From: a virus | IMG/VR virus record: IMGVR_UViG_3300036045_000021 | Span: 1-48,436 of that record | Reading direction: 5' to 3' (one strand) | DNA: 48,436 nt | Part shown: piece by piece, positions 4,619-21,482 of the stretch | Position numbering within the stretch: the stretch's first letter is position 1 | How the letters are laid out: each line of letters begins with the position of its first letter | Translations under genes and position numbers: made by a program | Notes under the pieces: generated by a model | What the model saw: only the letters and a program-made list of their open reading frames with translations | Told to the model about the DNA's origin: nothing | Databases searched by the model: none

Positions 4619-5147
4619 GTCCAAGCGAGCCAGGAAACCGAAGGCGAAGGCCGAGGCGAAGAGAGGCAACGTCCCTGAGGGCGCGCTGGAGTTCGACGAC
4701 GATGGCAAGCTCATCCCGCCGCGGATCACGAAGCAGCGGAGAATCTTCACCATTGCGCTGCTGATGGCGGAAGGAGAGTGGCGCCCGTCGCTCGCGAAGG
4801 ACCTGGCTGGTGAGTGGAAGCTCGAGCCAAAGACCGTGCAGCACTACTCAGCCGAGGCTGGCCGGCTCGTCACCTACACAGCCGACCAGCGCGAGACCCT
4901 GGTGAAGGTTGCCCGTCTGCGGCTGCGACAGATTGGGCTCGAGGACGGGCCGGACCGCGTGCAGGCCTGGCGCACACTGCTCGAGAACCTCGGCGAGCTC
5001 CGCCAGCAGCACACCGTGCGTCACGCGCCCACCGACTACGACGGCTGGACCCAGGCGGAGATCGAGGAGTACGTCCTCAGCGGCCGGTACCCCGATCGCC
5101 TGAAAGGGGCGAAAGCGCCGTCACCGGATGGCACAGGCCAGCCATGA
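4602..5147 (+). CDS. Putative terminase small subunit / DNA-packaging protein
   Basis: A 181-residue protein immediately before, and overlapping by 20 bases, the large terminase. It starts with a Lys/Arg-rich N-terminus, then has a helix-turn-helix-like stretch around residues 55-85 (LAKDLAGEWKLEPKTVQHYS) and an acidic C-terminal half. Small terminases bind pac or cos DNA through an N-terminal HTH and stimulate the large subunit, which this layout fits. ATG 4602 was chosen because it begins the basic region and overlaps the previous stop; longer starts would add residues lying wholly within the upstream gene. The assignment rests on position and HTH, not on a specific family match. Confidence 0.55.
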   Translation: MEALDKSKRARKPKAKAEAKRGNVPEGALEFDDDGKLIPPRITKQRRIFTIALLMAEGEWRPSLAKDLAGEWKLEPKTVQHYSAEAGRLVTYTADQRETLVKVARLRLRQIGLEDGPDRVQAWRTLLENLGELRQQHTVRHAPTDYDGWTQAEIEEYVLSGRYPDRLKGAKAPSPDGTGQP

Positions 5148-6669
5148 GCTCATCGAACGTGCGCGAGCGCGGCGGTACCTGACCGAGCTGCAGACACGCG
5201 AGGACCTGCTCCGATACATCCCGTTCGTGACGCCAGAGTACGTGGCCCCGGTCGCGCTGGCGCCCATCTGCGCGCTGTTCGACCGCATCATGCGGGGCGA
5301 GCAGGTATTCGCCTGCATCCAGGCCCCGCCGCGCCACGGCAAGAGCCACGTGCTTTTTCACGGGGTGGCGCGCCTCCTGCGCTGGCGGCCGCGCACGCGT
5401 GTCGGGTACGTCTCGTACAACGAGATCATCGCGGCTCAGCAAAGCCGCGAAGCGTGGCAGGTGGCAGCGCGGGCAGGGGTCGTGTTCGAGAGTCCCGCCA
5501 AGCACGGAGGGGTGAGAGTCGATCCGAGCGCGAGTGTGAGGCACTGGCAGACGGCCGCGGGAGGGGGCTTCCAGGCCGTGGGTCGTCACGGAGGCATCGT
5601 AGGGACCGGCGTGGACTTGCTGATCAGCGACGACCCGATCAAGGAGCGCGCAGAGGCGGAGAGCCCGGCCTTTCGGGATAGCGTCTGGCAGGCGTTCACG
5701 GACAGTCAATTCACGCGGCGCGAGCCAGGCGCCTCGGTGCTGGTCTGTCACCAGCGCTGGAACGACGACGATCTGATTGCACGCGTGCTCCGGCTGGCCG
5801 AGGAAAATCCCAACGCGCCGCGATTCGAACTGGTCTCGCTGCCGGCACTCAACGAGCACAACGAGCCGCTGTGGCCGGAGCGCTTCGACGTACACGCGCT
5901 AGCCCAGATTCGTGCCGTCGTGGGCGAGCATACCTGGTGGGGGCAGTTCATGCAGGCGCCCCGTCCGAAGGGCGGGAGTCTGTTTGGCGAGGCGGCGCGC
6001 TACCCAGGCAAGGCGCAGCTCATCGGCCGCCGGGTAGTCATCAGCGTCGATGCCGCCGGCACGGCCAAGACGAGCGCCGACCATACCGCCATCACGATCA
6101 CGGTCTACTGGCGGCAGGAATGGGTGAGCCCAGACGGCACGCGGCTACCCGGGATGCTGCACGGCCAAGTGCTGCGCTGCTACCGATTCCAGCTCGAGAC
6201 TCCCGACGTCGTACGGGTCCTCGACCAGCTGCAGCGCGATTGGCCGGGCGCTCCGGTCGTGATCGAGAGCCAAGGAGGCTCAGGGCAAACGACGGCGCAG
6301 ACGCTTCGTCGGCTCCAGCCTGCTCTGCGCATCACCGAGGTGCCGCGCACGGTCGACAAGTTCACGGCAGCTCAGCCGTGCGCGGCTGGCTGGAACCAGG
6401 GGCGGCTCATGGCGCCGCTGCAGCACGACACCTCGCTCGATTCCGTGGCGCTGCAGAAGCTCCTGCGGCAGCTGGGTGTCTGGGACGAAGGGCAATGGCT
6501 AGCGCCCTACCTGAAGGAGTTTGCGCGCTTCACAGGGCTGGCCGGCGGCGAAGATGACCAGGTGGATGCAACGGTGCACGGTTGGGACTTCGCGGAGGCT
6601 ATGTCGATGGGCAGCGCACAGAGGCCCGTGCGAGGGCCGCGGAAGGCGGCTCAGACGGGCGGGTTCTAG
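5128..6669 (+). CDS. terL: Terminase large subunit (packaging ATPase/nuclease)
   Basis: A 513-residue packaging motor that cuts concatemeric DNA and pumps it into the prohead. The ATPase domain shows a Walker A-like APPRHGKS (residues 66-73) and Walker B VDLLISDD (162-169). The RNase H-like nuclease domain starts near residue 305 with VISVDAAGTAK, and the last part has the conserved GGEDDQVDA acidic cluster that supplies nuclease metal ligands. Length and motif order match phage terminases of the Mu gp28/T4-like class. It overlaps the putative small subunit. The portal normally follows, but here a 7-kb appendage and sulfatase island intervenes. Confidence 0.95.
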   Translation: MAQASHELIERARARRYLTELQTREDLLRYIPFVTPEYVAPVALAPICALFDRIMRGEQVFACIQAPPRHGKSHVLFHGVARLLRWRPRTRVGYVSYNEIIAAQQSREAWQVAARAGVVFESPAKHGGVRVDPSASVRHWQTAAGGGFQAVGRHGGIVGTGVDLLISDDPIKERAEAESPAFRDSVWQAFTDSQFTRREPGASVLVCHQRWNDDDLIARVLRLAEENPNAPRFELVSLPALNEHNEPLWPERFDVHALAQIRAVVGEHTWWGQFMQAPRPKGGSLFGEAARYPGKAQLIGRRVVISVDAAGTAKTSADHTAITITVYWRQEWVSPDGTRLPGMLHGQVLRCYRFQLETPDVVRVLDQLQRDWPGAPVVIESQGGSGQTTAQTLRRLQPALRITEVPRTVDKFTAAQPCAAGWNQGRLMAPLQHDTSLDSVALQKLLRQLGVWDEGQWLAPYLKEFARFTGLAGGEDDQVDATVHGWDFAEAMSMGSAQRPVRGPRKAAQTGGF

Positions 6670-10541: not shown

Positions 10542-11563
10542 GGATCTCGCTAGGCCTTTCGTTGGGACGCGCGGCGCTCGGGACGGTAACAATCCCGACG
10601 CCGGCCCTGTACTTAGAGATCCGAAAGAACATCACGTTCTTTGCTGGCAACATGCGAATTCTCACGGGCACAAGCGTGCCCAATATCGCCATGGCGGCAG
10701 CACCTTCGGGTTCGCTCACGTTCGCGAATAATCCGCCGGCCATCGAGGTCAATTGTGTGGACGTCTCGGGCGGGACGGCGCTCGGGCAGGCCAAGGTAGA
10801 CGTGCTGTATGACGGCGTTGTGAGCATGGCCGCAGTCACGACGAGCGCGACGCTCGACCTGACCGGTGCCGGTGCGGGCGTGCGGCTTGTCTGCGGCACG
10901 GGCACGTACGCCACTAATCAGAGCTGGCGAAACAAGGTGGGCTCCTGGACGTCCACCGAAGGCAACTCGCGAGTATTCGAGCAAACGACCGGCGCGCAGT
11001 GCCCGAGCTACGTCAAGGTCGGCTCCGTCTGGCGCCTCGACTTTACAGCAACCGGCAGCGAACGGCTCGTATGCACAACAGCTGCTGTCGCGCAGCTGTT
11101 TCAAAATGCTAGCCCGTTCAACCTCTGGTTCCGCACCGCAACAGACAACGCCAATCAAGCGCGCGCCATCTTCGCCGTAGGCAACAGCGCCCAAGCGTCC
11201 AATGGCTCGAAACGCTTCGGCACCTCTACCACTGGCAACGGGCGCTGGACGTGCTCTGTGGTGACGGACGCTGCCGGCACCGACGGCGGCCCCTTCGAAT
11301 CAGGCGTCAACATCGACACCAACGACCACCTGTTATTGTGGCGGCACACCGGCTCAACCATCACGCTGGACGAAGATGGAGTGAACCTGATTAGCACGGC
11401 CAACACTCCTGGCACGACCAGCCCCAATCAGGCCGCCATTGCGGCGCGCCCGTCGAGTACGCACACCCAGTTTTACGACGGGAAGGTCGGCAGCATTCGC
11501 GTCGATGCCTCCGACCTGTCCTCAGATGTCCGGGCCGCTATCGCGGCTGCGTTTCCTGCCTGA
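10538..11563 (+). CDS. Lectin-like (LamG/concanavalin fold) phage adhesion protein
   Basis: A 341-residue protein translationally coupled to the tailspike by a GTGA overlap. The N-terminal ~130 residues look like a structural strand domain (SLGLSLGRAALG start). The C-terminal ~200 residues, with SKRFGTSTTGNGRWT, VNIDTNDHLLLWRHTG and a closing YDGKVGSIRVDAS, have the alternating strand pattern of concanavalin A-like/LamG lectin domains found in phage fibres. It probably decorates the fibre or binds carbohydrate. The 3' end overlaps the convergent sulfatase by 26 bases, leaving no room for a terminator between them. Confidence 0.65.
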   Translation: MRISLGLSLGRAALGTVTIPTPALYLEIRKNITFFAGNMRILTGTSVPNIAMAAAPSGSLTFANNPPAIEVNCVDVSGGTALGQAKVDVLYDGVVSMAAVTTSATLDLTGAGAGVRLVCGTGTYATNQSWRNKVGSWTSTEGNSRVFEQTTGAQCPSYVKVGSVWRLDFTATGSERLVCTTAAVAQLFQNASPFNLWFRTATDNANQARAIFAVGNSAQASNGSKRFGTSTTGNGRWTCSVVTDAAGTDGGPFESGVNIDTNDHLLLWRHTGSTITLDEDGVNLISTANTPGTTSPNQAAIAARPSSTHTQFYDGKVGSIRVDASDLSSDVRAAIAAAFPA

Positions 11564-13088
11564 GCCGCTCGGCCAAAGCGGCTTGTGTGGCTGCAGGTAG
11601 CAGGTGCCAGGTGTTGGTGACCTGGTCCGGGTCAGTCTTTGAATCATGCCATTCGCGCTCTCCGGTCGAATATTCGACGTACAAGCCGTCCGGGCCTCGT
11701 AGAGCTCGGTAGCTTGGCGGGCCGCCCGCTTCGGCGCCCTCGACGGCATCCGGATCGTCGGGTTGGTCCACGGCCGAAGCCCGATGCTCGAGCAGCGCAT
11801 GCGTGCGCCACTCAGTAGGCTGGTTGCCCTTGAGCCAGGGCACCAGTGAACGGCCGTCACCGGGCAACGTCTCGGCGCCACCGAGCTCGGTGAACGTCGG
11901 GCAAAGGTCAACGTTTTGTGTGATTGCTTGAACGGTCGAACCAGCGGCAACGCCGGGACCGACCACGATAAGAGGGACATGCACATCCGTGTCGTAAGGA
12001 GTGCGCTTGCCCGGTAGCAGGCTGCGCTCTCCCATGTGGTAGCCGTTGTCACTGGTGAAAACGATGCACGTGTTTTCGGCGATGCCTAACTCTTCGATCT
12101 GCGCACGCAAGGCACCGATTGCTTCGTCGATGGCCTGTACAGCGCGAACTCGCTGACGGAATGCCGTGTCTATGGCGGTAATGTTGCCGTCCGTCAGCGG
12201 CGGCACAGCGCGGAGCCATGCCGGATCGGTTGCCGAAGCCCGAACGCCGAATGCTGCGGTCCGCGGGTAGACGGTATCCGCATGCACGGCAGCGTGCCGC
12301 TTGGCCGCGATGTAAGGCTTGTGCGGCGCGAACGTCGAGAGCTGCACGAAAAACGGTGTTCGCGCCGTCGAGACAATCTCGCCAGCGATTCCCGCGAGCA
12401 CGTCGGTGATGTAATCCTCGGGCTCGGTGCCGTAGTGCACAACCTCGCCGTTGCGGCTGAGATCGTAGTTGTAGGCGCCGTAGGCGTAACCTGCGACGTG
12501 CCAGTCGGACCAGCCGCGCTGCGGCCTGTTCTTCGTGGGCTCGTAGCCGTTGATCCACTTTCCGAGTAGCGCTGTGTGATAGCCTGAGGCCTGCAGCGCA
12601 GTCGCGAACGTAGCGTCCTCGTGGTCGCCCGTTTGCCATGCGGCGAGCCCGCCTTCCGGGCCGATGTTCGCCCATACGCCGCTCGAATGAGGATGCAATC
12701 CGGTAAACAGCGTGGCGCGGCTAGGGCAGCACAGCGAATTGCTGACGAAGTAGTTTTCGAAGGTGACGCCATCCGCCTGCAGGCGCTTCACTTCGGGCAT
12801 GTAAGGCAGCAAGGTCCAGGTCAGATCGTCGGCAAGGATGAGGATAATATTCGGCGGTTTCGCGGGTGGCGACGGTGGCGTCGGCCCACCGCCGCTCCCT
12901 TCGGCTTGGGTAGCTTCCCGCCACTCTGGCGCCGGCTCAGTGGGCTCTGTAGGCTCTTGCGGCTCTCGGTCTGAGAACGCAGCCGGGACCGGATCAAGCA
13001 CCGAAGCAGTCAAGCCGCTGGGTTCGGCTGGTTCGACGCCGCAGCCGAGCGCCAGTGCGGCAAACAAGATTCGTTGTACGATAGCCAT
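11538..13088 (-). CDS. Lipoprotein sulfatase (formylglycine-dependent) carried as phage cargo
   Basis: A 516-residue type I sulfatase. It starts with a lipoprotein signal (hydrophobic FAALALGC, lipid-accepting Cys16), followed by a Pro/Glu linker to ~75. The catalytic domain shows ILADD (metal ligands D87, D88), the sulfatase signature CCPSRATLFTG with Cys120 as the formylglycine site (C-x-P-S-R), GKW and SDNGYHMGE. The family hydrolyses sulfate esters of polysaccharides and needs a host formylglycine-generating enzyme. AGGAG precedes the ATG. It is transcribed against the phage operon. Combined with its own signal peptide this suggests a gene expressed in the lysogen, not a virion part; the substrate is unknown. 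Confidence 0.92.
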   Translation of the reverse strand: MAIVQRILFAALALGCGVEPAEPSGLTASVLDPVPAAFSDREPQEPTEPTEPAPEWREATQAEGSGGGPTPPSPPAKPPNIILILADDLTWTLLPYMPEVKRLQADGVTFENYFVSNSLCCPSRATLFTGLHPHSSGVWANIGPEGGLAAWQTGDHEDATFATALQASGYHTALLGKWINGYEPTKNRPQRGWSDWHVAGYAYGAYNYDLSRNGEVVHYGTEPEDYITDVLAGIAGEIVSTARTPFFVQLSTFAPHKPYIAAKRHAAVHADTVYPRTAAFGVRASATDPAWLRAVPPLTDGNITAIDTAFRQRVRAVQAIDEAIGALRAQIEELGIAENTCIVFTSDNGYHMGERSLLPGKRTPYDTDVHVPLIVVGPGVAAGSTVQAITQNVDLCPTFTELGGAETLPGDGRSLVPWLKGNQPTEWRTHALLEHRASAVDQPDDPDAVEGAEAGGPPSYRALRGPDGLYVEYSTGEREWHDSKTDPDQVTNTWHLLPAATQAALAERLRQETQPR

Positions 13089-13207: not shown

Positions 13208-13510
13208 GTGACAGGTTGCGGCGTGGATTCTGCCCAGCAAAACCGTGCCATCGGCGTCGCTCAGGGCCGCCGAGAGGCGGCGGAACACTTCGCCCGAGCT
13301 CTCCGCACCGTCGTCGCACGGTGGCGCGCCGAGGAGGCCGGAGCGGGCGCCTTGCGCGCGGCCCTGCTGCACTCTCTTACCGAGCGTTGGTGCTCTCGCG
13401 TCGAGGCTCTGGCGCTTGAGCTGGAGCAGCAGCTGCCGGCACTCCGGGCGGCAGAGGCACAGGCGATCGCCGCCTGCCCGCCAGGATCCCGCTGGTGGAG
13501 GCGCTGGTGA
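13208..13510 (+). CDS. Small helical protein upstream of portal
   Basis: This 100-residue, Ala/Arg-rich helical protein reopens the head gene operon after the sulfatase. It starts at GTG 13208 with only a weak SD and overlaps the portal start by GTGA. It has no recognised domain; the long helix rich in Leu and Glu (residues 45-85) could form a coiled coil. It may be a small packaging or head accessory protein judged by position, but the evidence is limited to its coupling with the portal gene. Confidence 0.45.
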   Translation: MTGCGVDSAQQNRAIGVAQGRREAAEHFARALRTVVARWRAEEAGAGALRAALLHSLTERWCSRVEALALELEQQLPALRAAEAQAIAACPPGSRWWRRW

Positions 13511-15102
13511 ACGCCAAGCTCGCGCCCCTGCATACCCCGCAGGGCATCGCGCAGCGAGCCGAGGCGGAGCGGCGCAAGGAGATCGATGCCGCCGCCAAGC
13601 GAGGCATCCGCCTGCGCTTCGACAGCGCTGGTAATCCGCTGCTCAGCGCCGCCAGCCTGCAAGACTCGATGTATGGCGGCGAGCTGCCGCTGATGGAGCA
13701 AAACCGCCGGTACTTCGGGCGCTCTCTCACGCCCGAGCACATCGAGCTAGCCATCCGCTCCGCTGATCTCGGGTTCATGCGGGACCTGACCGATCTGGAG
13801 TACGAGACTCTGCACATCGATCCGAGCTTTTCATCCGTCGTGAACAAACGAATGCGTGCGATGGCCAGCGTCCCTGCGCAGGTTTTGCCGGCAGTCGGCG
13901 ATGGCCTCGACGAGACGAAAGCAAAGTTCTACGCGGATGTCGTGCGCCAGCAGCTCGCATGGGTCCCGAACCTGCGCCTCCAAATCCGTAGACTCAACTG
14001 GGCCCACTGCCACGGTCGCGCGGCGCTCGAGAAAGTCTGGCGCGAGAACCCGTCAGGCAGCCAGGTGCGCTGGCGCATCGACTCGCTCAACTGGATCCAT
14101 CCTCGAAGGTTGAGCTTTGGTCCGGAACGCGAGCTCCGGGTGCGCGACGACATGTTCGCGGGCGCCGGCTTTGAGAGGCGAGGGCTCGAGCTCAGGAGCG
14201 TGCCGTTCAAGTTTGTGAGCTTCACGCCCCAGGACTTCGACGACTACCCGGAGCGCGAAGGCTTTGGACCCCGTGCTCTCTATTTCTCGTTCTTCAAGCG
14301 CTTTGGATGGCGTGAACGCATGATCCTGCTCGAGGTGTTCGGTAAGCCCTGGAGGATCGTGCGGATGCTCGAGGGTGCTCAGGGCGTGCAGCGCGAGGAC
14401 CTCGACGAGGCGGGCGAAGCGGCTGACGCCATGGGCGCCAACGCAACGGGTGTAATGCCGCCGGGCGTAGATGCCGAACTCATCAGTCCCGATCAGTACG
14501 CCGGGCAAATCCACAAGGACGTCGCGGCCGAGTGCAACGACGAGATCAGCAAGCTGGTACTTGGCACGACGCGCACGACCGACGCGAAGCCGGGAGCGCT
14601 CGGATCCGCCGGTGACGAGGTTGGGCAGGAGGAACAGAGCGGCGTTTTCGCGGCGGACGGCTGGGACCTTTCGGACCTGCTCACCGAGCAACTCGCGGCC
14701 GACATCATCGCCCTCAACTTCGGAGCCGAAGCGCTAGATCACTGTCCGCGCATCGAGCTTCGCTACGAGCTCAAGGCGAGCCGAGGCGTCGAGATCGAAC
14801 GAACCGTGAAGGTGTTCGGGATGGGGCAGCCGCTCAAGAAGAGCGAGTTCTACGAGCGCGTGGGCTTCACAGCGCCCGAGCCCGACGACGAAGTCGTGCA
14901 GCAGCAGGTGGCGCCGGCGATGCCCGGGGGCTCTTCAGGTCTCGGCGATTTGGGCCTACCGGGGGGCGACGAAGCGAGCCCGCTCGGCGACGGCGGCGCG
15001 TCGCTGCCCGACCCGGAGACCTTCGCCGACGCCACGGACCCGCTCGTATTGGTGCGCGCTGCACGCGTGCTGCAGCTGCTCGACCGTAGCCGCACCCGAT
15101 GA
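13507..15102 (+). CDS. Mu gp29-like portal protein (DUF935)
   Basis: A ~531-residue portal subunit: twelve copies form the ring through which DNA enters and the tail attaches. The central region matches DUF935/Mu gp29 features: FMRDLTDLEYETLHIDPSFS, VVNKRMRAMASVPAQVLP, a Trp-rich WAHCHGRAALEKVW strand, and ERMILLEVFGKPWRI. Another typical stretch is LVLGTTRTTDAK..GALGS. The C-terminal ~70 residues are a Gly/Pro/Asp-rich tail. GTG 13507 is preferred: GGAGG at 13497-13501 has good spacing and the start overlaps the previous stop. GTG 13495 in the same frame is the alternative. It is followed by the MuF-type gene with an ATGA overlap, as in Mu-like phages. Confidence 0.92.
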   Translation: MNAKLAPLHTPQGIAQRAEAERRKEIDAAAKRGIRLRFDSAGNPLLSAASLQDSMYGGELPLMEQNRRYFGRSLTPEHIELAIRSADLGFMRDLTDLEYETLHIDPSFSSVVNKRMRAMASVPAQVLPAVGDGLDETKAKFYADVVRQQLAWVPNLRLQIRRLNWAHCHGRAALEKVWRENPSGSQVRWRIDSLNWIHPRRLSFGPERELRVRDDMFAGAGFERRGLELRSVPFKFVSFTPQDFDDYPEREGFGPRALYFSFFKRFGWRERMILLEVFGKPWRIVRMLEGAQGVQREDLDEAGEAADAMGANATGVMPPGVDAELISPDQYAGQIHKDVAAECNDEISKLVLGTTRTTDAKPGALGSAGDEVGQEEQSGVFAADGWDLSDLLTEQLAADIIALNFGAEALDHCPRIELRYELKASRGVEIERTVKVFGMGQPLKKSEFYERVGFTAPEPDDEVVQQQVAPAMPGGSSGLGDLGLPGGDEASPLGDGGASLPDPETFADATDPLVLVRAARVLQLLDRSRTR

Positions 15103-17762
15103 CGGCCACCCAAGCCCTGGCTGAGCTCACCGAGCTCGACCGCTTCCTGGTGTCTGCGGCGCATCGCCAACAGCTGGGCGTGCATATCTGCCTGGCCGAG
15201 CAGCCCGAGACCGTGAACGGCTCGCCCGAGGACCTGGTGGTTACGGCCGTCGCAGACGGGGCCCTCATCACGGGCGGCTGGGCCGACGAGCTCGTCGCGG
15301 CGCTCGAAGGCAAGGACAGTATCGCTGAGATCAGTCTCGCCATCCGGCGCGCCGGCGATGCTTTTGACCTCGAGCCGTTTGCGCGGCTGGCCGAGGAGCA
15401 GATCCTGAGAGGGCTCATGCTCGGTGCGCTGGACTCGCAATGGGAGCGGGAGAACGATCTAGAGGTCGCGCCAGCGCGCTTCCGCGACGAGGGCAAAGCG
15501 CCGGCTGTTTACGCACCGTTCACGCGCGCGATCGAAGTGTTCGAGCAAAAGCAGGTTCTCAGCCCGCTCGCCTTCGGAAAGCTGCAGGAGGCGGCGAAGC
15601 AGAAGGCTTTCACGGTCGCGGGGCTCGCCAAGCAGGAGCTACTCGCCGCCGCGCACGCTGAGCTGCTGAAGCGCATCCGTGAGGGGCAGAAGCTCGAAGG
15701 CGGCCCGAACCTGCGCGACTTCAAGCGCTTCGCCAAGGAGCGGCTCGAGAGCGCGGGCTGGACGCCGGCAAACAAGAGCCACGTAGAAACGATCTACCGA
15801 ACCCAAATCGTCGGCGCCTACCAGGGCGGCCGAGTGCTCGAGATGAGCCAGCCTAGCGTGCTGGCGGCGATGCCGTTCTGGCAGATTCGTGGCGTGACCG
15901 ATGCTCGGCAGCGCGCGACGCATCGCAAAGCGCACGGAATCGTGCTGCCGGCGAACCACCCGTTTTGGCGCACGGCCTATCCGCCTTTTGGTTTCGCGTG
16001 TCGCTGTAAAGCGGTAGCGCGAACAGCATCCTATCTCAAAAATAACGCCATCACCCCGGGACCGGTCCCGACCGGCCTCCCCGATCCCGGCTTCGAGAGC
16101 GGGACTCGCGCGCTGATCCAGGTACCGCCGCAGCTGCTGCAAAGGCCCGCCGCGAACGTACCGGTACCGGTACCAGTGCCGGCGCCACCCGCCCTGGCGC
16201 CGGTCGTTCGACTTCCGGCTTCGCTCCCGCCGCCGCCTCCCGCGCCGCCGCCACTGCCGCCGCCGCGGGTCCCCGTCCAGGAACTCGACGTGCTGGCGAA
16301 GAAGGTCGCCGAGGCCACCGGCTCGAACCCCGGAGGGGTGTACGTCGGCTCGGACGGTGTGAAGCGCTACGTGAAGTTCTACGAGGACAGCGCGCAGGCT
16401 GCCGGCGAGCATCTGGCCAACAGCATCTACCGGGACCTCGGCCTGGCGGGGCCCGAGAGCGTTCTGTTCGTGCACGAAGGCAAGCTTGCTTACGCGAGCG
16501 AGATCTTGCCGGAGGTCAAGACGCTCGGCTCCAAGCTCACTCCAGAACTCGCCAAGAAAGCACTCGACGGATTCGCGGCCGACGTGCTGATGGCCAACTG
16601 GGATGCCGCCGGCCTCGTCCTCGACAATATGCTGGTCGATGCGAAGGGGCGCATCATCCGCATCGACAACGGCGCCGCGTTTCTGACCCGCGCCCAGGGC
16701 GCCCGCAAGCCACTCGAGCTGCTCGGGCGAGTGACGGAGTGGGATACGTTCTTCTCGGTCGCCAAAAACCCAGGCTATGCGCGGCTCGCTGCGGAGGCTG
16801 GTATCACCGGCCCGGCAGGCCTAGCGGCAAGCATCAAGCGCGGCGTGACCAAGATCGAAAAGCTGCGCGACGCGTCCGGCGGCTGGCGCGCGTACGTCCA
16901 GGCGCGTGCGCAGGGCCTGAGCATCGCGGACCGCGAGCAGATCATCGGCATGCTCGAGGCGCGCACGACGTTCCTGCGGCGCAAGGTCGCCGAGCTCGAG
17001 TCGGCTGCGGTCAGGCCCCGGACTCGCAAGATCGCGAAGCTCGAGGCGGCGCCGCTGCCGAAGGAACGAGAGCGCGCCGTAGTAGACCTGGACCACGGCG
17101 AATACCAGAGAAAGGCGGCCGAGAAGCTACAGCTCCTCACCGACCGAGAGCGCGTCGCCATCACCGAGTATACGGGAGGCGACTATTCGCGGATACGCGA
17201 CGCGCAGTTTCTCACTCCTGAGCAGTGGCAGGACAAATGGAGCAGAGAGCTCAAACGAGCGCTCGCGCCGGAAGAGTATTTCCAGGCCCGCTTGACCGCC
17301 GACCAGATCGAGCAGAGCTTCACCAAACTGGCCGGCGCCGTAGGTGTCGAGGCGCAGGTAACCGAGGTGTTCCGCGGCATGAGACTGCCCGCCGAGATGG
17401 TCGAGGAGCTCATTAATGCCCGCGTCGTGGAGTGGCAGGCCATGACGAGTTCGAGCTGGAACCCCAGCGTCGCGGAGGACTTCAGTCGCCCCTACAGCTC
17501 AGACCAGGTCGGCGTGGTGTTCGTCATGCGGACCATGGGCAGCAAGACGGCGGGCCGGCGCATGGCAATCGAGCCCGTCTCTGCCGTGCATGGCGAAGGG
17601 GAGGTGCTGCTGCAACGGGGCACCCAGTATCGCATCGTCGACGTCAAAGCCGACAGCGACGCTGAGCGCGTGCTGAGCAACGGTCAGCGCCGCGTGATTA
17701 TCTACTGCGAAGAGCTAGCGCCTGGCAGCCGTCTGCCCGAGACCGTCAAACTCGCGGCGTGA
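15099..17762 (+). CDS. MuF minor head protein fused to kinase-like and ADP-ribosyltransferase domains
   Basis: An 887-residue three-part protein. Residues ~1-305 are the Mu F/SPP1 gp7-like minor head protein, with the conserved end around THRKAHGIVLP, HPFWRTAYPPFGFACRC. A Pro-rich linker follows (~345-400). Residues ~405-560 look like a HipA/PI3-4-kinase-like fold: VYVGSDGVKRYVKF with Lys426, LDNMLVD (D509, N510) and RIDNGAA (D523). The C-terminus (~690-870) is an ADP-ribosyltransferase with the R-S-E triad: FRGM (R759), TSSSW (784-786) and EGEVLLQRG (E833, E835, the ExE motif). MuF proteins enter the cell or sit in the capsid with DNA, and MuF-toxin fusions are a known polymorphic toxin class. 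Targets unknown. Confidence 0.9.
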   Translation: MTATQALAELTELDRFLVSAAHRQQLGVHICLAEQPETVNGSPEDLVVTAVADGALITGGWADELVAALEGKDSIAEISLAIRRAGDAFDLEPFARLAEEQILRGLMLGALDSQWERENDLEVAPARFRDEGKAPAVYAPFTRAIEVFEQKQVLSPLAFGKLQEAAKQKAFTVAGLAKQELLAAAHAELLKRIREGQKLEGGPNLRDFKRFAKERLESAGWTPANKSHVETIYRTQIVGAYQGGRVLEMSQPSVLAAMPFWQIRGVTDARQRATHRKAHGIVLPANHPFWRTAYPPFGFACRCKAVARTASYLKNNAITPGPVPTGLPDPGFESGTRALIQVPPQLLQRPAANVPVPVPVPAPPALAPVVRLPASLPPPPPAPPPLPPPRVPVQELDVLAKKVAEATGSNPGGVYVGSDGVKRYVKFYEDSAQAAGEHLANSIYRDLGLAGPESVLFVHEGKLAYASEILPEVKTLGSKLTPELAKKALDGFAADVLMANWDAAGLVLDNMLVDAKGRIIRIDNGAAFLTRAQGARKPLELLGRVTEWDTFFSVAKNPGYARLAAEAGITGPAGLAASIKRGVTKIEKLRDASGGWRAYVQARAQGLSIADREQIIGMLEARTTFLRRKVAELESAAVRPRTRKIAKLEAAPLPKERERAVVDLDHGEYQRKAAEKLQLLTDRERVAITEYTGGDYSRIRDAQFLTPEQWQDKWSRELKRALAPEEYFQARLTADQIEQSFTKLAGAVGVEAQVTEVFRGMRLPAEMVEELINARVVEWQAMTSSSWNPSVAEDFSRPYSSDQVGVVFVMRTMGSKTAGRRMAIEPVSAVHGEGEVLLQRGTQYRIVDVKADSDAERVLSNGQRRVIIYCEELAPGSRLPETVKLAA

Positions 17763-18077
17763 CTGCAGCAGCAGAAGGTCCTGCCACACGTCGTGATACA
17801 CCGTGGCGCGCACTGCCCCCTGCTGCTCGGCGACGGCATTCTTGAAATTGTCGTAGTCGACCCCGTCGACCGCCTCGGTCATGACCGTCGCAAAGTCGAG
17901 CCGGTCCACCTCTACCCGGTAGGGGTAATCCGCATTCGGCGTGTGCTGCAGCGGCTCGACCAGCCTGCGCGCCAAGGCTTCGACGTCGGCCCTGACACGT
18001 CCTCGGACCAGCAGGCGGTCGGGCTTGCCGCGGTGCTGCACGACTGAAAAGAAACCGAACGTCGTGAACACCCACAT
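17715..18077 (-). CDS. Small conserved hypothetical protein, possible immunity/cargo gene
   Basis: A 120-residue reverse-strand protein resembling a recurring family of short proteins that begin with MWVFTTFGFFSVVQ and end with ATVYHDVW, with a middle DYPYRVEVDRLDFA and DNFKNAVAEQQG. The biochemical role of that family is not known to me. Its start overlaps the upstream gene stop by one base (TGATG), and its 3' end overlaps the 3' end of the MuF-ADP-ribosyltransferase gene by 48 bases. That convergent position beside a toxin domain raises the possibility of an immunity factor, but there is no direct sequence evidence. Confidence 0.75.
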   Translation of the reverse strand: MWVFTTFGFFSVVQHRGKPDRLLVRGRVRADVEALARRLVEPLQHTPNADYPYRVEVDRLDFATVMTEAVDGVDYDNFKNAVAEQQGAVRATVYHDVWQDLLLLQSRREFDGLGQTAARR

Positions 18078-18283
18078 CAGAACACCCGCGCGACGCCGTC
18101 TTCACCCACCGATACCTCATCGGAGATGAACCGGAAGGGGCGCACCTGCAAACCGGTGTCGTAGGTCACCAGGATCTGAGCGGCATCGACGTGAGGGTCG
18201 GCCGCCAGCCGCTCCACCTCCGCCCTCGTGGAAAGGTACTGTTTGCCGCCATACTCGACAGCTACGATCTTGCGCTGGGCCAT
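18077..18283 (-). CDS. Small hypothetical protein coupled to the 120-residue gene
   Basis: This 68-residue product (start MAQRKIVAVEYGGKQYLSTRA) is a mixed strand/helix protein. It is the first gene of a two-gene reverse-strand unit and is coupled to the next gene by TGATG. The Lys-Tyr-Gly rich first strands followed by an ERLAADPHVDAAQILVTYDTG segment look like a compact alpha/beta fold. No family is recognised. The forward-strand protease gene starts about 60 bases away, so the two units are divergent across 18284-18346. Confidence 0.6.
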   Translation of the reverse strand: MAQRKIVAVEYGGKQYLSTRAEVERLAADPHVDAAQILVTYDTGLQVRPFRFISDEVSVGEDGVARVF

Positions 18284-18346
18284 CCATCTAGCGTGCGGCG
18301 GACGGCGCGAGGGGTCAAGCGCATTGAGTGCCGCCAAGCTCCGGCC

Positions 18347-19942
18347 GTGGCAGCGAAGCTTTCTAAGCCCAAAAACCCGCGCCGCCTGACTCGCTTCGGC
18401 GCCCCCATTCGCCTGACCTCCGAGGTTTCCGACAGCGACGAGCCGGTCTGGATCCAGATCGCCTACGAGGGGACATGGAGCGGGCACCCCAGCGGCGAGA
18501 AGGTGGAGTTCGACCGCAAGGTGTTCTCCCAGATCATCGAGAACTTCCGGGCTCACCCCTGGTACCACAAGGGCGAGGACGGAGTCGGCGACAAGCCCGT
18601 CATCCCGTACGACTACGAACACGCGAGCGAGATGGCGCCCACCGAGGGAAGTATCCCAGCGACGGGCGCGCCGGCGCCGGCGTGGGCGCTGGAGCTGGAG
18701 CTGCGCGATGGCGACGCCGGCAAGCTCGAGTTGTGGGCACTCACCCAGCTGAGTTCGCAAGCGCGTGAACAGATTCGAGCAGGTGGTTACCTGAGCACGT
18801 CGGTCGCGGTCTGGATGAACGCCAAGGACAACGTCTCGGGCAAACCGATCGGGGCGCTGCTCACGAGCATCGCGTTCACGAACCACCCCTTCGTCAAGGG
18901 GATGGCGCCGATCGCTGCCTCGATGGGCGTGTATGGCAAGGCGGAGACTCCGGAGGAGTTCATCGTCGGGCTGCGCGACCTGCTCGGTTTGCCGTCGGAC
19001 GCCGACGTCGCCGCGGTCACGCTCGAGCTCGAGGCGCTGCGTGTGGCGGTGAGTGAGGGCTTCGCGACAGCTGCATGTCCCGAGGGCTACGGGTGGCTCG
19101 TCAACAGCATGCGCTGTCTGCTCGGGCTCAGAGTGCTGGCCACCACAGATGAAATCTTCGCTTCGGCGGGTCAGGCGCTCGGTACTAGCGCAAACCCCAC
19201 CGCATCCGCGCCACAGCCGGCGCCCGAGGAAGCACCCATGACCGCACCTGCGATCAACACGCTCGCTCAGAAACTAGCCGACCTGTTCAACTGCCGCGAC
19301 GCTGAGCCGTTGCTCCTGGCGGCGGCGGAGAAGGCGAAGCAGAAGGGCGACACGCTCGACCAGTTGATCGGACTGTTCGAGTCCGACGACATGGCGTCGC
19401 TGCTCGGAGACGCGGCCAAGGTGATCGAGAAGGCCAAGCGGGCCGATGAGTACCTGGCTGGTCTGACCTCGGTGCGTGACCGGCTCAGCGCGGCCGAGAA
19501 GAAAGAGGCCGAGTCCGAGGTCGAGCAGGTGGCGGCGTCGATGGGCCTCACCGGCGACACGCTCGAGAAAGTCAAGTCGCTGCTGCTCACCGAGCGACTC
19601 GCATGCGATGTCGATGACAGCGCGAAGCGTGAAGAGAAGCTCGTCGCCTTCCGCGCCAAGTACCCGTCGCCCAGGATCGACCCGAGCAAGACGCTGCTGA
19701 CGCAGCCGCTCGTCGCCGGTCGCAACGGAGTGCAGCTCATCGCTGCAGCGCCAGCGGCCGCGCCGCAGGCGGGACAGGCTGGCGAGCACGTCACGCTGTT
19801 CGCGGCGTATCCAGGCCGCAATGACGTGGAGAAGGCGCAGGCCTATCTCTGTGACAAGCAGCCAGGGTTTCGGCTGAACGACCGCGCGACGCAGGTGCGT
19901 CTCGCAGGCAAATTCGTACGCACCGGCACCATCGCCGCCTGA
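18347..19942 (+). CDS. Mu I-like prohead protease with C-terminal scaffold
   Basis: About 531 residues. The N-terminal ~230 residues fit the Mu gpI-type maturation protease: WIQIAYEGTWSGHPSG, a conserved YDYEHASEMAP stretch (with the catalytic-type His), a GKLELWALTQLS strand, REQIRAGGYLSTSVAVW, and SIAFTNHPFVKGMAPIAAS. The C-terminal half is acidic and helical, as expected of an internal scaffold. GTG 18347 is the first in-frame start beyond the divergent gene; it has no good SD. The enzyme would cleave scaffold inside the prohead. A strong internal start at 19238 suggests a separately made scaffold. Next come the decoration and major capsid genes. Confidence 0.85.
   Translation: MAAKLSKPKNPRRLTRFGAPIRLTSEVSDSDEPVWIQIAYEGTWSGHPSGEKVEFDRKVFSQIIENFRAHPWYHKGEDGVGDKPVIPYDYEHASEMAPTEGSIPATGAPAPAWALELELRDGDAGKLELWALTQLSSQAREQIRAGGYLSTSVAVWMNAKDNVSGKPIGALLTSIAFTNHPFVKGMAPIAASMGVYGKAETPEEFIVGLRDLLGLPSDADVAAVTLELEALRVAVSEGFATAACPEGYGWLVNSMRCLLGLRVLATTDEIFASAGQALGTSANPTASAPQPAPEEAPMTAPAINTLAQKLADLFNCRDAEPLLLAAAEKAKQKGDTLDQLIGLFESDDMASLLGDAAKVIEKAKRADEYLAGLTSVRDRLSAAEKKEAESEVEQVAASMGLTGDTLEKVKSLLLTERLACDVDDSAKREEKLVAFRAKYPSPRIDPSKTLLTQPLVAGRNGVQLIAAAPAAAPQAGQAGEHVTLFAAYPGRNDVEKAQAYLCDKQPGFRLNDRATQVRLAGKFVRTGTIAA
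19238..19942 (+). CDS. Nested in-frame scaffold protein
   Basis: ATG 19238 lies in the frame of the protease gene, with GAGGAAG starting 12 bases upstream, and would give a 234-residue protein beginning MTAPAINTLAQKLADLF. It is acidic, Ala/Glu/Lys-rich and helical over ~150 residues, like capsid scaffolds. Nested scaffold starts within protease genes are established for lambda C/Nu3 and Mu I/Z. The product itself is predicted from the start signal and position. Confidence 0.55.
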   Translation: MTAPAINTLAQKLADLFNCRDAEPLLLAAAEKAKQKGDTLDQLIGLFESDDMASLLGDAAKVIEKAKRADEYLAGLTSVRDRLSAAEKKEAESEVEQVAASMGLTGDTLEKVKSLLLTERLACDVDDSAKREEKLVAFRAKYPSPRIDPSKTLLTQPLVAGRNGVQLIAAAPAAAPQAGQAGEHVTLFAAYPGRNDVEKAQAYLCDKQPGFRLNDRATQVRLAGKFVRTGTIAA

Positions 19943-20369: not shown

Positions 20370-21482
20370 ATGAGTCAACCTCCCCGCTCCCCAAACCTCC
20401 CGCTCGACACCCGATCCAGTCAGGACGGCGCCCCGCCAGGGCACCGCTACTTCACGCTCGCCGAGGACGTGGACGGTGTCGGTCGGGCCGGCACCCGAAT
20501 CCTCATGGCGGTGACGCCTGCCGAGGTAGGCGACCAAGCGCGAGAACTAGACACCTATCTCGCCGGGTTCTCGCCCTATGCCTTTTGCGCCGACCTGCTG
20601 TCGCCGGTCGTGCTGGTGGACAAGGAAAAAGGCAAGCGCCGAGACTTCAGCATGGAGAACATGTTCGAGGTCGTACCGACCGAGGTCGGTCGCAACGGCG
20701 CGATCAAGGAGATCAGTCACGCTTCGGCGACGACTGACTATCAGACCTTCGAGCACGGTCTGGCGAGCTACATCCCGTGGGGAGCGCAGAACGAAGCCGT
20801 GGAGCTCTACGACGTGCGCGCCGCCTCCGGCGAGATGTGCATGGTCAAGCTCGACCTGTCGCGCGAAGTGCGCGTGTTCGCGCACGCAACCACGCTGACC
20901 AACTGGGCCTCGACGAACCGGACGACGCTCGGCAGCACGGCCAAGTGGGACAACGGCTCGGCGAAGAACCCGCGCGCCGACCTGCACGCTCGCATCACTG
21001 CGAGTTCGCAGCCGGTGACGGACATCTTCATGAATCCGGACGTCGCGTTCTGGTTCTTGGGCGACACCGAGGTGCGCGCGTACCTGAAGCAGATGATGGG
21101 CGACAACGCGCTGCCTCCGGACGTTGCTCGCAGTGCCGATACTCAGGGCTACATGAAGCTGAGCATCGAGGGCTTCCCGCCAATTCACATCTGCCCAGCG
21201 AAGCGCATCCCCGCGGCCGGCGGCGCCCTCACCTACGTGCTGGGAGATGATGTCATTTTGACCTGCAATCCTCCTGGCGGTCTGCCGCGAGACGGTAAGC
21301 GCCTAATGACCTTCACGACCTTCCGCGCCAAGGGGCGTAGCGGCGTGGGTGTCACCACGAACGAGTACATCCCGCAAGGCCGCGGCATCAACGGCGGAAC
21401 GATGTTCGAGGTGGGTTACGGCGAAACCCATTTCATCACCAACAACACGGCAGGCGGTCTAATCAAAGACGTCCTGTCCTGA
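20370..21482 (+). CDS. Major capsid protein
   Basis: A 370-residue shell protein. Features of HK97-fold phage capsid proteins: a flexible N-terminal arm, a central region with SPVVLVDKEKGKRRDFSMENMFEVVPTEVG, a long helix, and a C-terminal domain with GFPPIHICPAKRIPA and a FEVGYGETHFITNNTAGGLIKDVL end. The DYQTFEHGLASYIPWGAQNE segment fits the E-loop/arm region of Mu-like and related capsids. The arrangement protease, decoration, capsid supports it. It starts at ATG 20370, about 20 bases after the decoration gene, with GAGGGAAAG upstream. Confidence 0.88.
   Translation: MSQPPRSPNLPLDTRSSQDGAPPGHRYFTLAEDVDGVGRAGTRILMAVTPAEVGDQARELDTYLAGFSPYAFCADLLSPVVLVDKEKGKRRDFSMENMFEVVPTEVGRNGAIKEISHASATTDYQTFEHGLASYIPWGAQNEAVELYDVRAASGEMCMVKLDLSREVRVFAHATTLTNWASTNRTTLGSTAKWDNGSAKNPRADLHARITASSQPVTDIFMNPDVAFWFLGDTEVRAYLKQMMGDNALPPDVARSADTQGYMKLSIEGFPPIHICPAKRIPAAGGALTYVLGDDVILTCNPPGGLPRDGKRLMTFTTFRAKGRSGVGVTTNEYIPQGRGINGGTMFEVGYGETHFITNNTAGGLIKDVLS

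What the first reader, a model, noticed from the sequence alone, without database searches (positions are those of the whole stretch)
15099..17762. Minor head protein fused to kinase-like and ADP-ribosyltransferase domains
Seen directly: a single 887-residue frame with a MuF-type N-terminus, a Pro-rich linker, a kinase-like core (K426, D509/N510, D523) and an R-S-E ADP-ribosyltransferase end (R759, SSS 784-786, E833-x-E835). MuF-toxin fusions are an established polymorphic toxin class in temperate phages, but a middle kinase-like domain together with an ART is uncommon. The inference is that the phage packages or injects a two-enzyme effector with its DNA.
Basis: partly seen in the sequence, partly recalled or inferred. 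Interest (0 to 1): 0.8.

Follow-up and report, generated by a model that had tools for sequence, protein, structure and literature searches.

The report
Phage capsid-linked two-enzyme effector protein
A bacterial virus encodes one protein joining a capsid-attachment piece to a HipA-like kinase and an ADP-ribosylating enzyme; the same kinase and enzyme occur together in many different phages, in some of them beside a small gene of unknown function, which makes it a good candidate for a protein that phages inject to disable or take over the host cell.

Summary
The 887-aa ORF is real and its three parts are confirmed: a MuF minor-head domain in the usual portal–MuF–protease–capsid order, a middle kinase fold, and a C-terminal R-S-E ADP-ribosyltransferase (ART) of VIP2/Alt type. 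AlphaFold of the middle domain (pLDDT 95.8) matches CtkA (Z 19.1), type II PI4-kinase, CotH and HipA; K426, E437, D502, N510 and D523 are almost invariant in an 80-row alignment. The pair is not uncommon: ART lies near the kinase in 56 of 80 viral-contig loci, in the same ORF in 53. Gene B occurs in 29 of the 80 loci and in 8 of 50,697 phage records, all 8 carrying the kinase. Five close relatives keep portal, MuF and protease but change the C-terminus; none shows an intact gene B. Most likely: a virion-borne, injected two-enzyme effector of the MuF polymorphic-toxin kind, with gene B (perhaps A) as protective or ADP-ribose-handling partner. Injection, activity, targets and immunity are inferred. 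A new variant of a known kind; nearest described relative: Bxa.

The parts
13495..15102 (+). portal protein; overlaps the start of the effector gene by 4 nt
   Evidence: phrog_113 portal, E 7.4e-47
15099..17762 (+). MuF-kinase-ART effector, 887 aa
15693..16013 (+). MuF domain (residues 199-305; the phrog_220 match covers 90-320)
   Evidence: PF04233 E 4.9e-13; phrog_220 E 9.7e-44
16131..16283 (+). Pro-rich linker (residues about 345-395)
   Evidence: read in the translation
16284..17018 (+). HipA/CtkA-like kinase domain, 'Kin' (residues about 396-640): K426, E437, D502, N510, D523
   Evidence: AlphaFold pLDDT 95.8; CtkA Z 19.1; conservation
17067..17708 (+). R-S-E ADP-ribosyltransferase domain (residues about 657-870): R759, S784-S786, E833-x-E835
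   Evidence: PF03496 E 2.7e-6; a 47-row ART profile matches VIP2 at 2.6e-33; invariants
17715..18077 (-). gene B, 120 aa, uncharacterised family; candidate partner or immunity gene; tail-to-tail with, and overlapping the end of, the effector ORF
   Evidence: homologues beside Kin-ART genes; AlphaFold pLDDT 92.6
18077..18283 (-). gene A, 68 aa, overlaps the start codon of gene B (TGATG)
   Evidence: sequence; likely homologues in the same gap in L011 and L012, though an HMM search found none
18191..19942 (+). Mu-like head maturation protease; the real start probably lies downstream of gene A (inference)
   Evidence: phrog_328 E 1.3e-18; PF10123 E 8.2e-14
20370..21482 (+). major head protein
   Evidence: phrog_1005 E 9.7e-20
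5128..6669 (+). terminase large subunit
   Evidence: phrog_38 E 2e-58

Best explanation
It is a capsid-anchored, virion-delivered two-enzyme effector of the MuF polymorphic-toxin kind. Shown: the MuF end sits in the canonical head slot, the middle is a HipA/CtkA-like kinase fold with its presumed ATP-binding and phosphotransfer residues kept, and the end is an R-S-E ART with its catalytic residues kept. Inferred, in order of confidence: MuF fixes a few copies at the portal; they enter the host with the DNA; the ART modifies host proteins (VIP2/Alt-type chemistry) to inhibit or redirect the cell; the kinase acts beside it, on host proteins, on the same targets or on the ART itself, as HipA-like kinases do; and gene B, perhaps with gene A, protects the producing cell or handles ADP-ribose products, as Bsi and BAH do for Bxa.
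For: Domains. Head operon order. Recurrence: ART within the fetched locus in 56 of 80 Kin loci, same ORF in 53, C-terminal of Kin in 49 of those 53; MuF and Kin in one ORF in 17 of the 80, ART in the same ORF in 11 of these. Packaging: fHe-Yen8-01 gp129 (Kin-ART) is annotated 'phage particle associated protein', gp132 (gene B) is not. Cargo exchange: 5 portal relatives keep portal, MuF, protease and capsid but differ after MuF. Gene B: in 8 of 50,697 phage records, all 8 with Kin; among the 80 loci in 26 of 56 with ART and 3 of 24 without. Precedent: Bxa, a MuF-ART with two neighbouring immunity proteins (PMC11699363).
Against: No activity, injection or virion data for this phage. No ART model was predicted; ART rests on sequence profiles. 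Gene B is convergent, not downstream on the same strand as immunity genes usually are; it was not found in 51 of 80 Kin loci (many cut by contig ends); and in 80 bacterial gene B loci my HMMs found neither Kin nor ART, so it is not simply a dedicated immunity gene. Kin also occurs without a recognised ART: 24 of 80 loci, Gordonia phage Phendrix and phage DSL-LC01 (which has gene B) in the stretches read. No integrase was found in the window, so the 'temperate phage' feature of MuF toxins is unproven.
Confidence: 0.6

Rival explanations
1. Alt-like takeover enzyme rather than a toxin: the injected ART (and kinase) reprogrammes host RNA polymerase or translation early in infection, and gene B is a regulator or ADP-ribose-recycling protein rather than immunity.
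For: phrog_802 'Alt-like RNA polymerase ADP-ribosyltransferase' matches residues 674-873, E 6.1e-6. Kin-ART proteins also occur in phages of about 90 kb without a MuF match in the same protein, and no integrase was found here. NUDIX genes lie near or fused to the module in some.
Against: Among 5 close relatives (about three lineages) the C-terminal part is replaced or shortened, as in polymorphic toxins; a core takeover enzyme should be kept. Small companion ORFs sit beside it.
Confidence: 0.25
2. The kinase domain is a regulatory or structural module (nucleotide-dependent timing, autophosphorylation or unfolding control of the ART) and does not act on host targets.
For: Where both share an ORF, Kin usually lies N-terminal of an ART (49 of 53). 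HipA-like kinases autophosphorylate (recalled knowledge, not tested).
Against: In L178/L179 MuF-Kin ends without an ART and keeps 60% identity to the window's Kin. In Gordonia Forza and in L002 Kin is a separate gene.
Confidence: 0.3
3. An ordinary minor head protein with decayed, inactive C-terminal domains.
For: ART is missing in 5 of 5 portal relatives, and L178/L179 keep only a possible 23-nt remnant of gene B.
Against: The catalytic residues of both enzymes are intact here and almost invariant across 80 and 47 rows; the frame is open over 887 codons.
Confidence: 0.05

Closest known systems
Bxa of a Bacteroides stercoris prophage (MuF - middle domain - ART, with immunity proteins BAH and Bsi); PMC11699363, abstract and passages read
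   Same: C-terminal ART on a MuF protein in the head module; similar layout (Bxa ART residues 621-869; here 657-870); small genes beside it
   Different: The word 'kinase' does not occur in the paper's main text, so its middle domain is not described there as one. Companions differ: BAH is an ARH1-type hydrolase and Bsi a binding protein; gene B is an uncharacterised family on the opposite strand. Bxa's sequence was not fetched or compared, so a related middle domain is not excluded.
MuF polymorphic toxins (Jamet et al. 2017, PMC5576092; passages read)
   Same: MuF N-terminus in the packaging module, variable C-terminal domains including ADP-ribosyltransferases, small ORFs next to the toxin gene
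   Different: 'Kinase' does not occur in the paper's main text; companion genes here are convergent; lysogeny is unproven
Phage T4 Alt and the Alt/VIP2 ART clade (PMC9503650, PMC5512222; passages read)
   Same: R-S-E ART; many ARTs of this clade fused to MuF are reported in PMC9503650
   Different: Kinase-ART pairing and gene B were not seen in the passages read; figures of those papers are not held
HipA/CtkA-type kinases and type II PI4-kinase
   Same: Fold (CtkA Z 19.1, PI4KII Z 15.0, HipT of Legionella Z 13.2, HipA Z 12.8); catalytic Lys and helix-C Glu align with HipA
   Different: Shorter; sequence below Pfam cut-offs (HipA_C matched 13 of 80 rows, best E 0.0024); no HipB-like partner looked for
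Kinase domains of polyvalent proteins (PMC5512222; passages read)
   Same: Kinase domains in phage multidomain proteins that may be injected with the DNA
   Different: Those are described as lacking the whole C-terminal subdomain; this model aligns with both lobes of CtkA and HipA, and none of the 80 rows matched that Pfam family (its name recalled) at E 0.1

Membership tests
MuF polymorphic toxins | N-terminal MuF domain | tested here: met
   PF04233 E 4.9e-13, phrog_220
MuF polymorphic toxins | Gene in the DNA-packaging/head module | tested here: met
   TerL, portal, effector, protease, major head protein
MuF polymorphic toxins | C-terminal domain varies while the N-terminus is kept | tested here: met
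   5 portal relatives: weak GNAT match below cut-off (L176, L177), Kin only (L178, L179), unknown (L180)
MuF polymorphic toxins | Small (<150 aa) adjacent ORF encoding immunity | tested here: inconclusive
   Genes A and B are adjacent and gene B recurs with the effector, but both are on the opposite strand; protection not tested
MuF polymorphic toxins | Carried by temperate phages | tested here: inconclusive
   No PF00589 or PF00239 in the window; two PF00589 matches in the 109-kb contig of relative L176, none in 5 other contigs
VIP2/Alt-type R-S-E ADP-ribosyltransferases | Arg / S-x-S / E-x-E catalytic motif in homologous positions | tested here: met
   R759, S786, E833, E835 invariant in A3; the 47-row profile matches Vip2 at 2.6e-33, also CdtA, Vis and C3
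VIP2/Alt-type R-S-E ADP-ribosyltransferases | NAD-dependent ADP-ribosylation | not testable with these tools
   needs an assay
HipA-like kinases | HipA-like kinase fold | tested here: met
   AlphaFold pLDDT 95.8; CtkA Z 19.1 over 223 residues at 3.1 A; HipA 4pu4 Z 12.8 over 203 at 4.1 A
HipA-like kinases | Catalytic Lys, helix-C Glu, catalytic-loop Asp/Asn, metal Asp in homologous positions | tested here: inconclusive
   K426, E437, D502, N510, D523 kept in nearly all rows; K426 and E437 align with HipA invariants (weak: probability 25); the C-lobe residues are matched to HipA only by motif and spacing
HipA-like kinases | Pfam HipA_C / HipA_2 sequence membership at the curated cut-off | tested here: not met
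   window row: no match; 13 of 80 rows match HipA_C weakly, best E 0.0024
Kinase domain of polyvalent proteins | Match to its Pfam model | tested here: not met
   not among the 18 families matched by the 80 rows at E 0.1

The most novel reading that the evidence does not exclude
Kin, ART and gene B form one phage module: an injected kinase and ADP-ribosyltransferase write two linked modifications (or the kinase phosphorylates the ADP-ribose mark or NAD itself), and gene B stands for a new ADP-ribose-handling or immunity protein family that in bacteria is fused to NUDIX hydrolases.
Probability: 0.2. Interest if true: 0.85.

Novelty: new variant of a known kind. Interest (0 to 1): 0.62.

Why it matters
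MuF-ART toxins are known, but a HipA/CtkA-like kinase placed before the ART, repeated in many different phages and annotated as particle associated in one of them, points to coupled phosphorylation and ADP-ribosylation at the moment of infection. Gene B gives a testable handle: a small, confidently predicted, uncharacterised family that accompanies the effector in part of these phages and is often fused to NUDIX hydrolases in bacteria. If it is an antidote or an ADP-ribose-handling protein, it would link phage effectors with bacterial ADP-ribose biology.

Tried and rejected
Kinase and ART as chance motif matches: rejected. 'Rare combination': rejected. Gene B as dedicated immunity only: not upheld, because in the 80 bacterial gene B loci my HMMs found neither Kin nor ART among the picked ORFs (a gene B ORF itself was picked in 59 of the 80). 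Fold of gene B: no clear solved match (Foldseek best E 0.14; VIA best Z 4.7); the tool's notes say that a missing match does not show a new fold. Gene A: an iterated HMM search over the loci then held found only the window's own copy; the likely homologues in L011 and L012 were picked by eye and then tested by shuffling, and none was recognised in the gaps of L015 and L027. NUDIX-box expression as a neighbourhood count: too strict (7 of 80 Kin loci), so NUDIX linkage in phages rests on annotations and Pfam in single loci. Kin in bacterial genomes: 5 of 369 in one class; four of the five were read with flanks and none had ART, gene B or MuF by my HMMs; the fifth was not fetched. Promoter/terminator scan of the A-B region: nothing found. 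Control for ART and gene B frequency near MuF genes without Kin: not done; the portal scan gave only 5 loci. Papers: searches for kinase with MuF or ART. Opened by passages: PMC9503650, PMC5512222, PMC7824862, PMC12419801 (MuF and HipA named in separate lists, no kinase-ART fusion), also PMC3482391, PMC11699363, PMC5576092. Seen only as listings: PMC9206674, PMC3224701, PMC7180214. None of the passages read describes this kinase; figures are not held. No paper in the library holds the name fHe-Yen8-01 and one search found nothing, so its virion proteomics could not be checked beyond the record's notes. A structure of the ART or of the full protein was not predicted: both jobs went to Kin and gene B. 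PADLOC was not searched.

Full report
Observation. The frame 15099-17762 (+) is open for 887 codons from ATG. Pfam finds MuF at residues 199-305 (E 4.9e-13) and ADPrib_exo_Tox near the C-terminus (E 2.7e-6, above its cut-off); nothing in Pfam matches the middle. PHROGs adds phrog_220, 'minor head protein and DNA pilot' (E 9.7e-44), and phrog_802, Alt-like ART (E 6.1e-6). The window is a virus record of 48,436 bases. The gene sits in a Mu-like head module: terminase 5128-6669, portal 13495-15102, effector, protease 18191-19942, major head protein 20370-21482, with tail sheath and baseplate genes further on.

Middle domain. An alignment of 80 rows (window plus 79 distinct viral-contig stretches) gave an AlphaFold model of pLDDT 95.8, pTM 0.92. 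Among the 1000 chains that Foldseek ranks highest in the PDB, VIA-align 2 puts CtkA first (Z 19.1, 223 residues, 3.1 A), then type II PI4-kinase (15.0), CotH (14.9), bacterial Ser/Thr kinases including HipT (13.0-13.5) and HipA (12.8); Foldseek's best is also CtkA (E 8.8e-7). Conservation: K426 79/80, E437 79/80, D495 80/80, N500 80/80, D502 79/80, D509 79/80, N510 80/80, D523 78/79. The search patterns were the GSN stretch and the stretch D495-D502, so conservation there is biased; that of K426, E437, D509, N510 and D523 is not. A profile comparison with six HipA-family proteins (E 7.6e-4 but probability 25, N-lobe only) puts K426 on their invariant Lys and E437 on their invariant Glu. By motif and spacing I take D502 as the catalytic-loop Asp and D523 as the metal Asp; the HipA roles are recalled. 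Pfam HipA_C matches 13 of 80 rows weakly (best E 0.0024) and the window row not at all, so the fold is HipA-like but membership by sequence is not met.

ART. R759, S786, E833 and E835 are invariant in seven aligned MuF-Kin proteins, window included. In 47 ART rows both Glu are invariant and the Arg is at least 90% conserved; the other rows share 11-29% identity with the window. The 47-row profile matches solved ARTs, Vip2 first (2.6e-33). No ART model was predicted.

Recurrence. tblastn of the whole protein against 50,697 phage records found 281, none covering 80% of it; the middle domain matched alone in Aeromonas ST4, Pseudomonas Touem01, Dolphis and Jeremy, Enterobacter phiT5282EW, Yersinia fHe-Yen8-01 and Gordonia phages. 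In the six that are not Gordonia phages Kin is followed in the same protein by an ART. In Gordonia Forza and Sixama Kin and ART are separate genes behind the portal; in Gordonia Phendrix Kin has no ART that my HMM finds in the stretch read. In viral contig L002 ART, Kin and a Zeta-toxin kinase are three successive genes behind a portal. In IMG/VR 431 of 600 listed pattern hits (more exist) were relatives; the best 80 were kept. In these 80, ART (my iterated HMM) is in the fetched locus in 56 and in the same ORF in 53, in 49 of which an ART lies C-terminal of Kin; in 24 no ART was found. Several of the 80 are near-duplicates (for example L020/L021, L029/L031, L042/L045, L067/L069) and many are cut by contig ends. 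MuF and Kin share an ORF in 17 of 80, with ART in the same ORF in 11 of those and gene B in 6. L014 has Kin fused to NUDIX (E 2.4e-12) with ART ORFs around it.

Companions. Tail-to-tail with the effector lie gene B (17715-18077, minus, 120 aa) and gene A (18077-18283, minus, 68 aa), overlapping by TGATG. Neither has a Pfam match. Gene B homologues occur in 29 of the 80 Kin loci: 26 of 56 with ART, 3 of 24 without (Fisher p 0.005, related loci not corrected). Of the three, L027 has a weak Pfam ART match after all (E 0.0014), L049 is cut at its Kin end, and L055 shows MuF and Kin but no ART. In the phage collection gene B is in 8 records and Kin in 19; all 8 gene B records carry Kin, the other 11 are Gordonia phages. 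Seven of the 8 look like one lineage by gene order; DSL-LC01 is separate, with gene B 15 kb from Kin and no ART found by my HMM in the stretches read. Likely gene A homologues lie in the gap between effector and gene B in L012 (score 57.5 against 22.8 +- 4.3 shuffled, 0 of 500 as high) and L011 (48.0 against 23.7 +- 4.5, 0 of 500); they were picked by eye from four gaps in six frames, the other two gaps gave none, and an HMM search found no homologue. Gene B is confidently predicted (pLDDT 92.6, pTM 0.80) and has no clear solved match.

Gene B in bacteria. A genome scan gave 190 relatives; 80 were kept. A gene B ORF was picked in 59; 22 of the 59 are 200-450 aa long; of the 15 of 240-300 aa that I printed, 13 show a NUDIX box after gene B, read by eye. 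On an Aeromonas plasmid a gene B-NUDIX gene lies two genes after an ADP-ribosylglycohydrolase; on a Sphaerotilus plasmid gene B sits among Sir2 and phosphatase genes; on a Rhodothermus plasmid nothing of the kind is annotated nearby. In none of the 80 bacterial loci did my HMMs find Kin or ART among the picked ORFs. Gene B therefore leans towards ADP-ribose biology in general and is not only an immunity gene of this effector.

Cargo exchange. Five contigs with the closest portals (59-72% identity) keep MuF at 49-56%, protease and capsid, but after MuF have a weak GNAT match (L176, L177), Kin only at the very end (L178, L179; 60% identical) or nothing recognised (L180). None has ART or an intact gene B in the fetched stretch. 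In the L178/L179 gap, at the same place and strand as gene B, 20 of 23 nt match gene B's start (blastn E 0.004 in a tiny database), which hints that ART and gene B were lost together. The five contigs are about three lineages.

Virion. In fHe-Yen8-01 the Kin-ART protein gp129 and gp130, gp131 and gp133 are annotated as particle associated; the gene B product gp132 is not. This is the record's own note; the experiment was not found in the paper library, and a small protein can be missed by mass spectrometry.

Interpretation. The best reading is an injected two-enzyme MuF effector. Bxa is the closest described case: a MuF-ART prophage protein, antibacterial in E. coli, neutralised by a hydrolase and a binding protein encoded beside it (PMC11699363, abstract and passages). 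MuF toxins with ART domains and small neighbouring ORFs are reported in PMC5576092 (passages), and MuF fusions to Alt/VIP2 ARTs in PMC9503650 (passages). The HipA-like kinase in front of the ART and gene B were not seen in the passages read of these, of PMC5512222, PMC3482391, PMC7824862 or PMC12419801, found through searches. Whether the protein kills, arrests or merely redirects the host, and what the kinase phosphorylates, is open.

Noticed in passing
window 11541-13088 (-): A sulfatase gene (PF00884, E 2.2e-45) with a CCPSR motif that looks like the sulfatase active site, on the opposite strand upstream of the portal; unusual cargo for a phage head module.
   Followed up: partly
L002 3282-6588 (same contig as L016): ART, Kin and Zeta-toxin ORFs behind a portal start with a shared stretch (like LIANGLEDWTL...PRDESGKxTGKGG), which could be a packaging, cleavage or delivery tag.
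   Followed up: no
L176, L177: Close relatives carry a weak GNAT acetyltransferase match after MuF (E about 4e-4, below cut-off), another possible cargo; the 109-kb contig of L176 has two integrase matches.
   Followed up: partly
L014 5845-7674: Kin fused directly to a NUDIX domain, with three ART-bearing ORFs around it.
   Followed up: partly
L091, L092: Bacterial gene B beside Sir2, dual-specificity phosphatase and MoxR/VWA genes, or in a NUDIX protein two genes after an ADP-ribosylglycohydrolase with a WYL regulator: resembles a defence or NAD-handling island.
   Followed up: no
L178 5215-5400 and the same gap in L179: A short minus-strand stretch like the start of gene B (MWLFTAFG) in the gap after MuF-Kin, perhaps a deletion remnant.
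   Followed up: partly
viral structure library: Kin-like folds also listed for tailed viruses of haloarchaea (HHTV-1, HSTV-2), one named PI3K/PI4K catalytic domain-containing protein.
   Followed up: no
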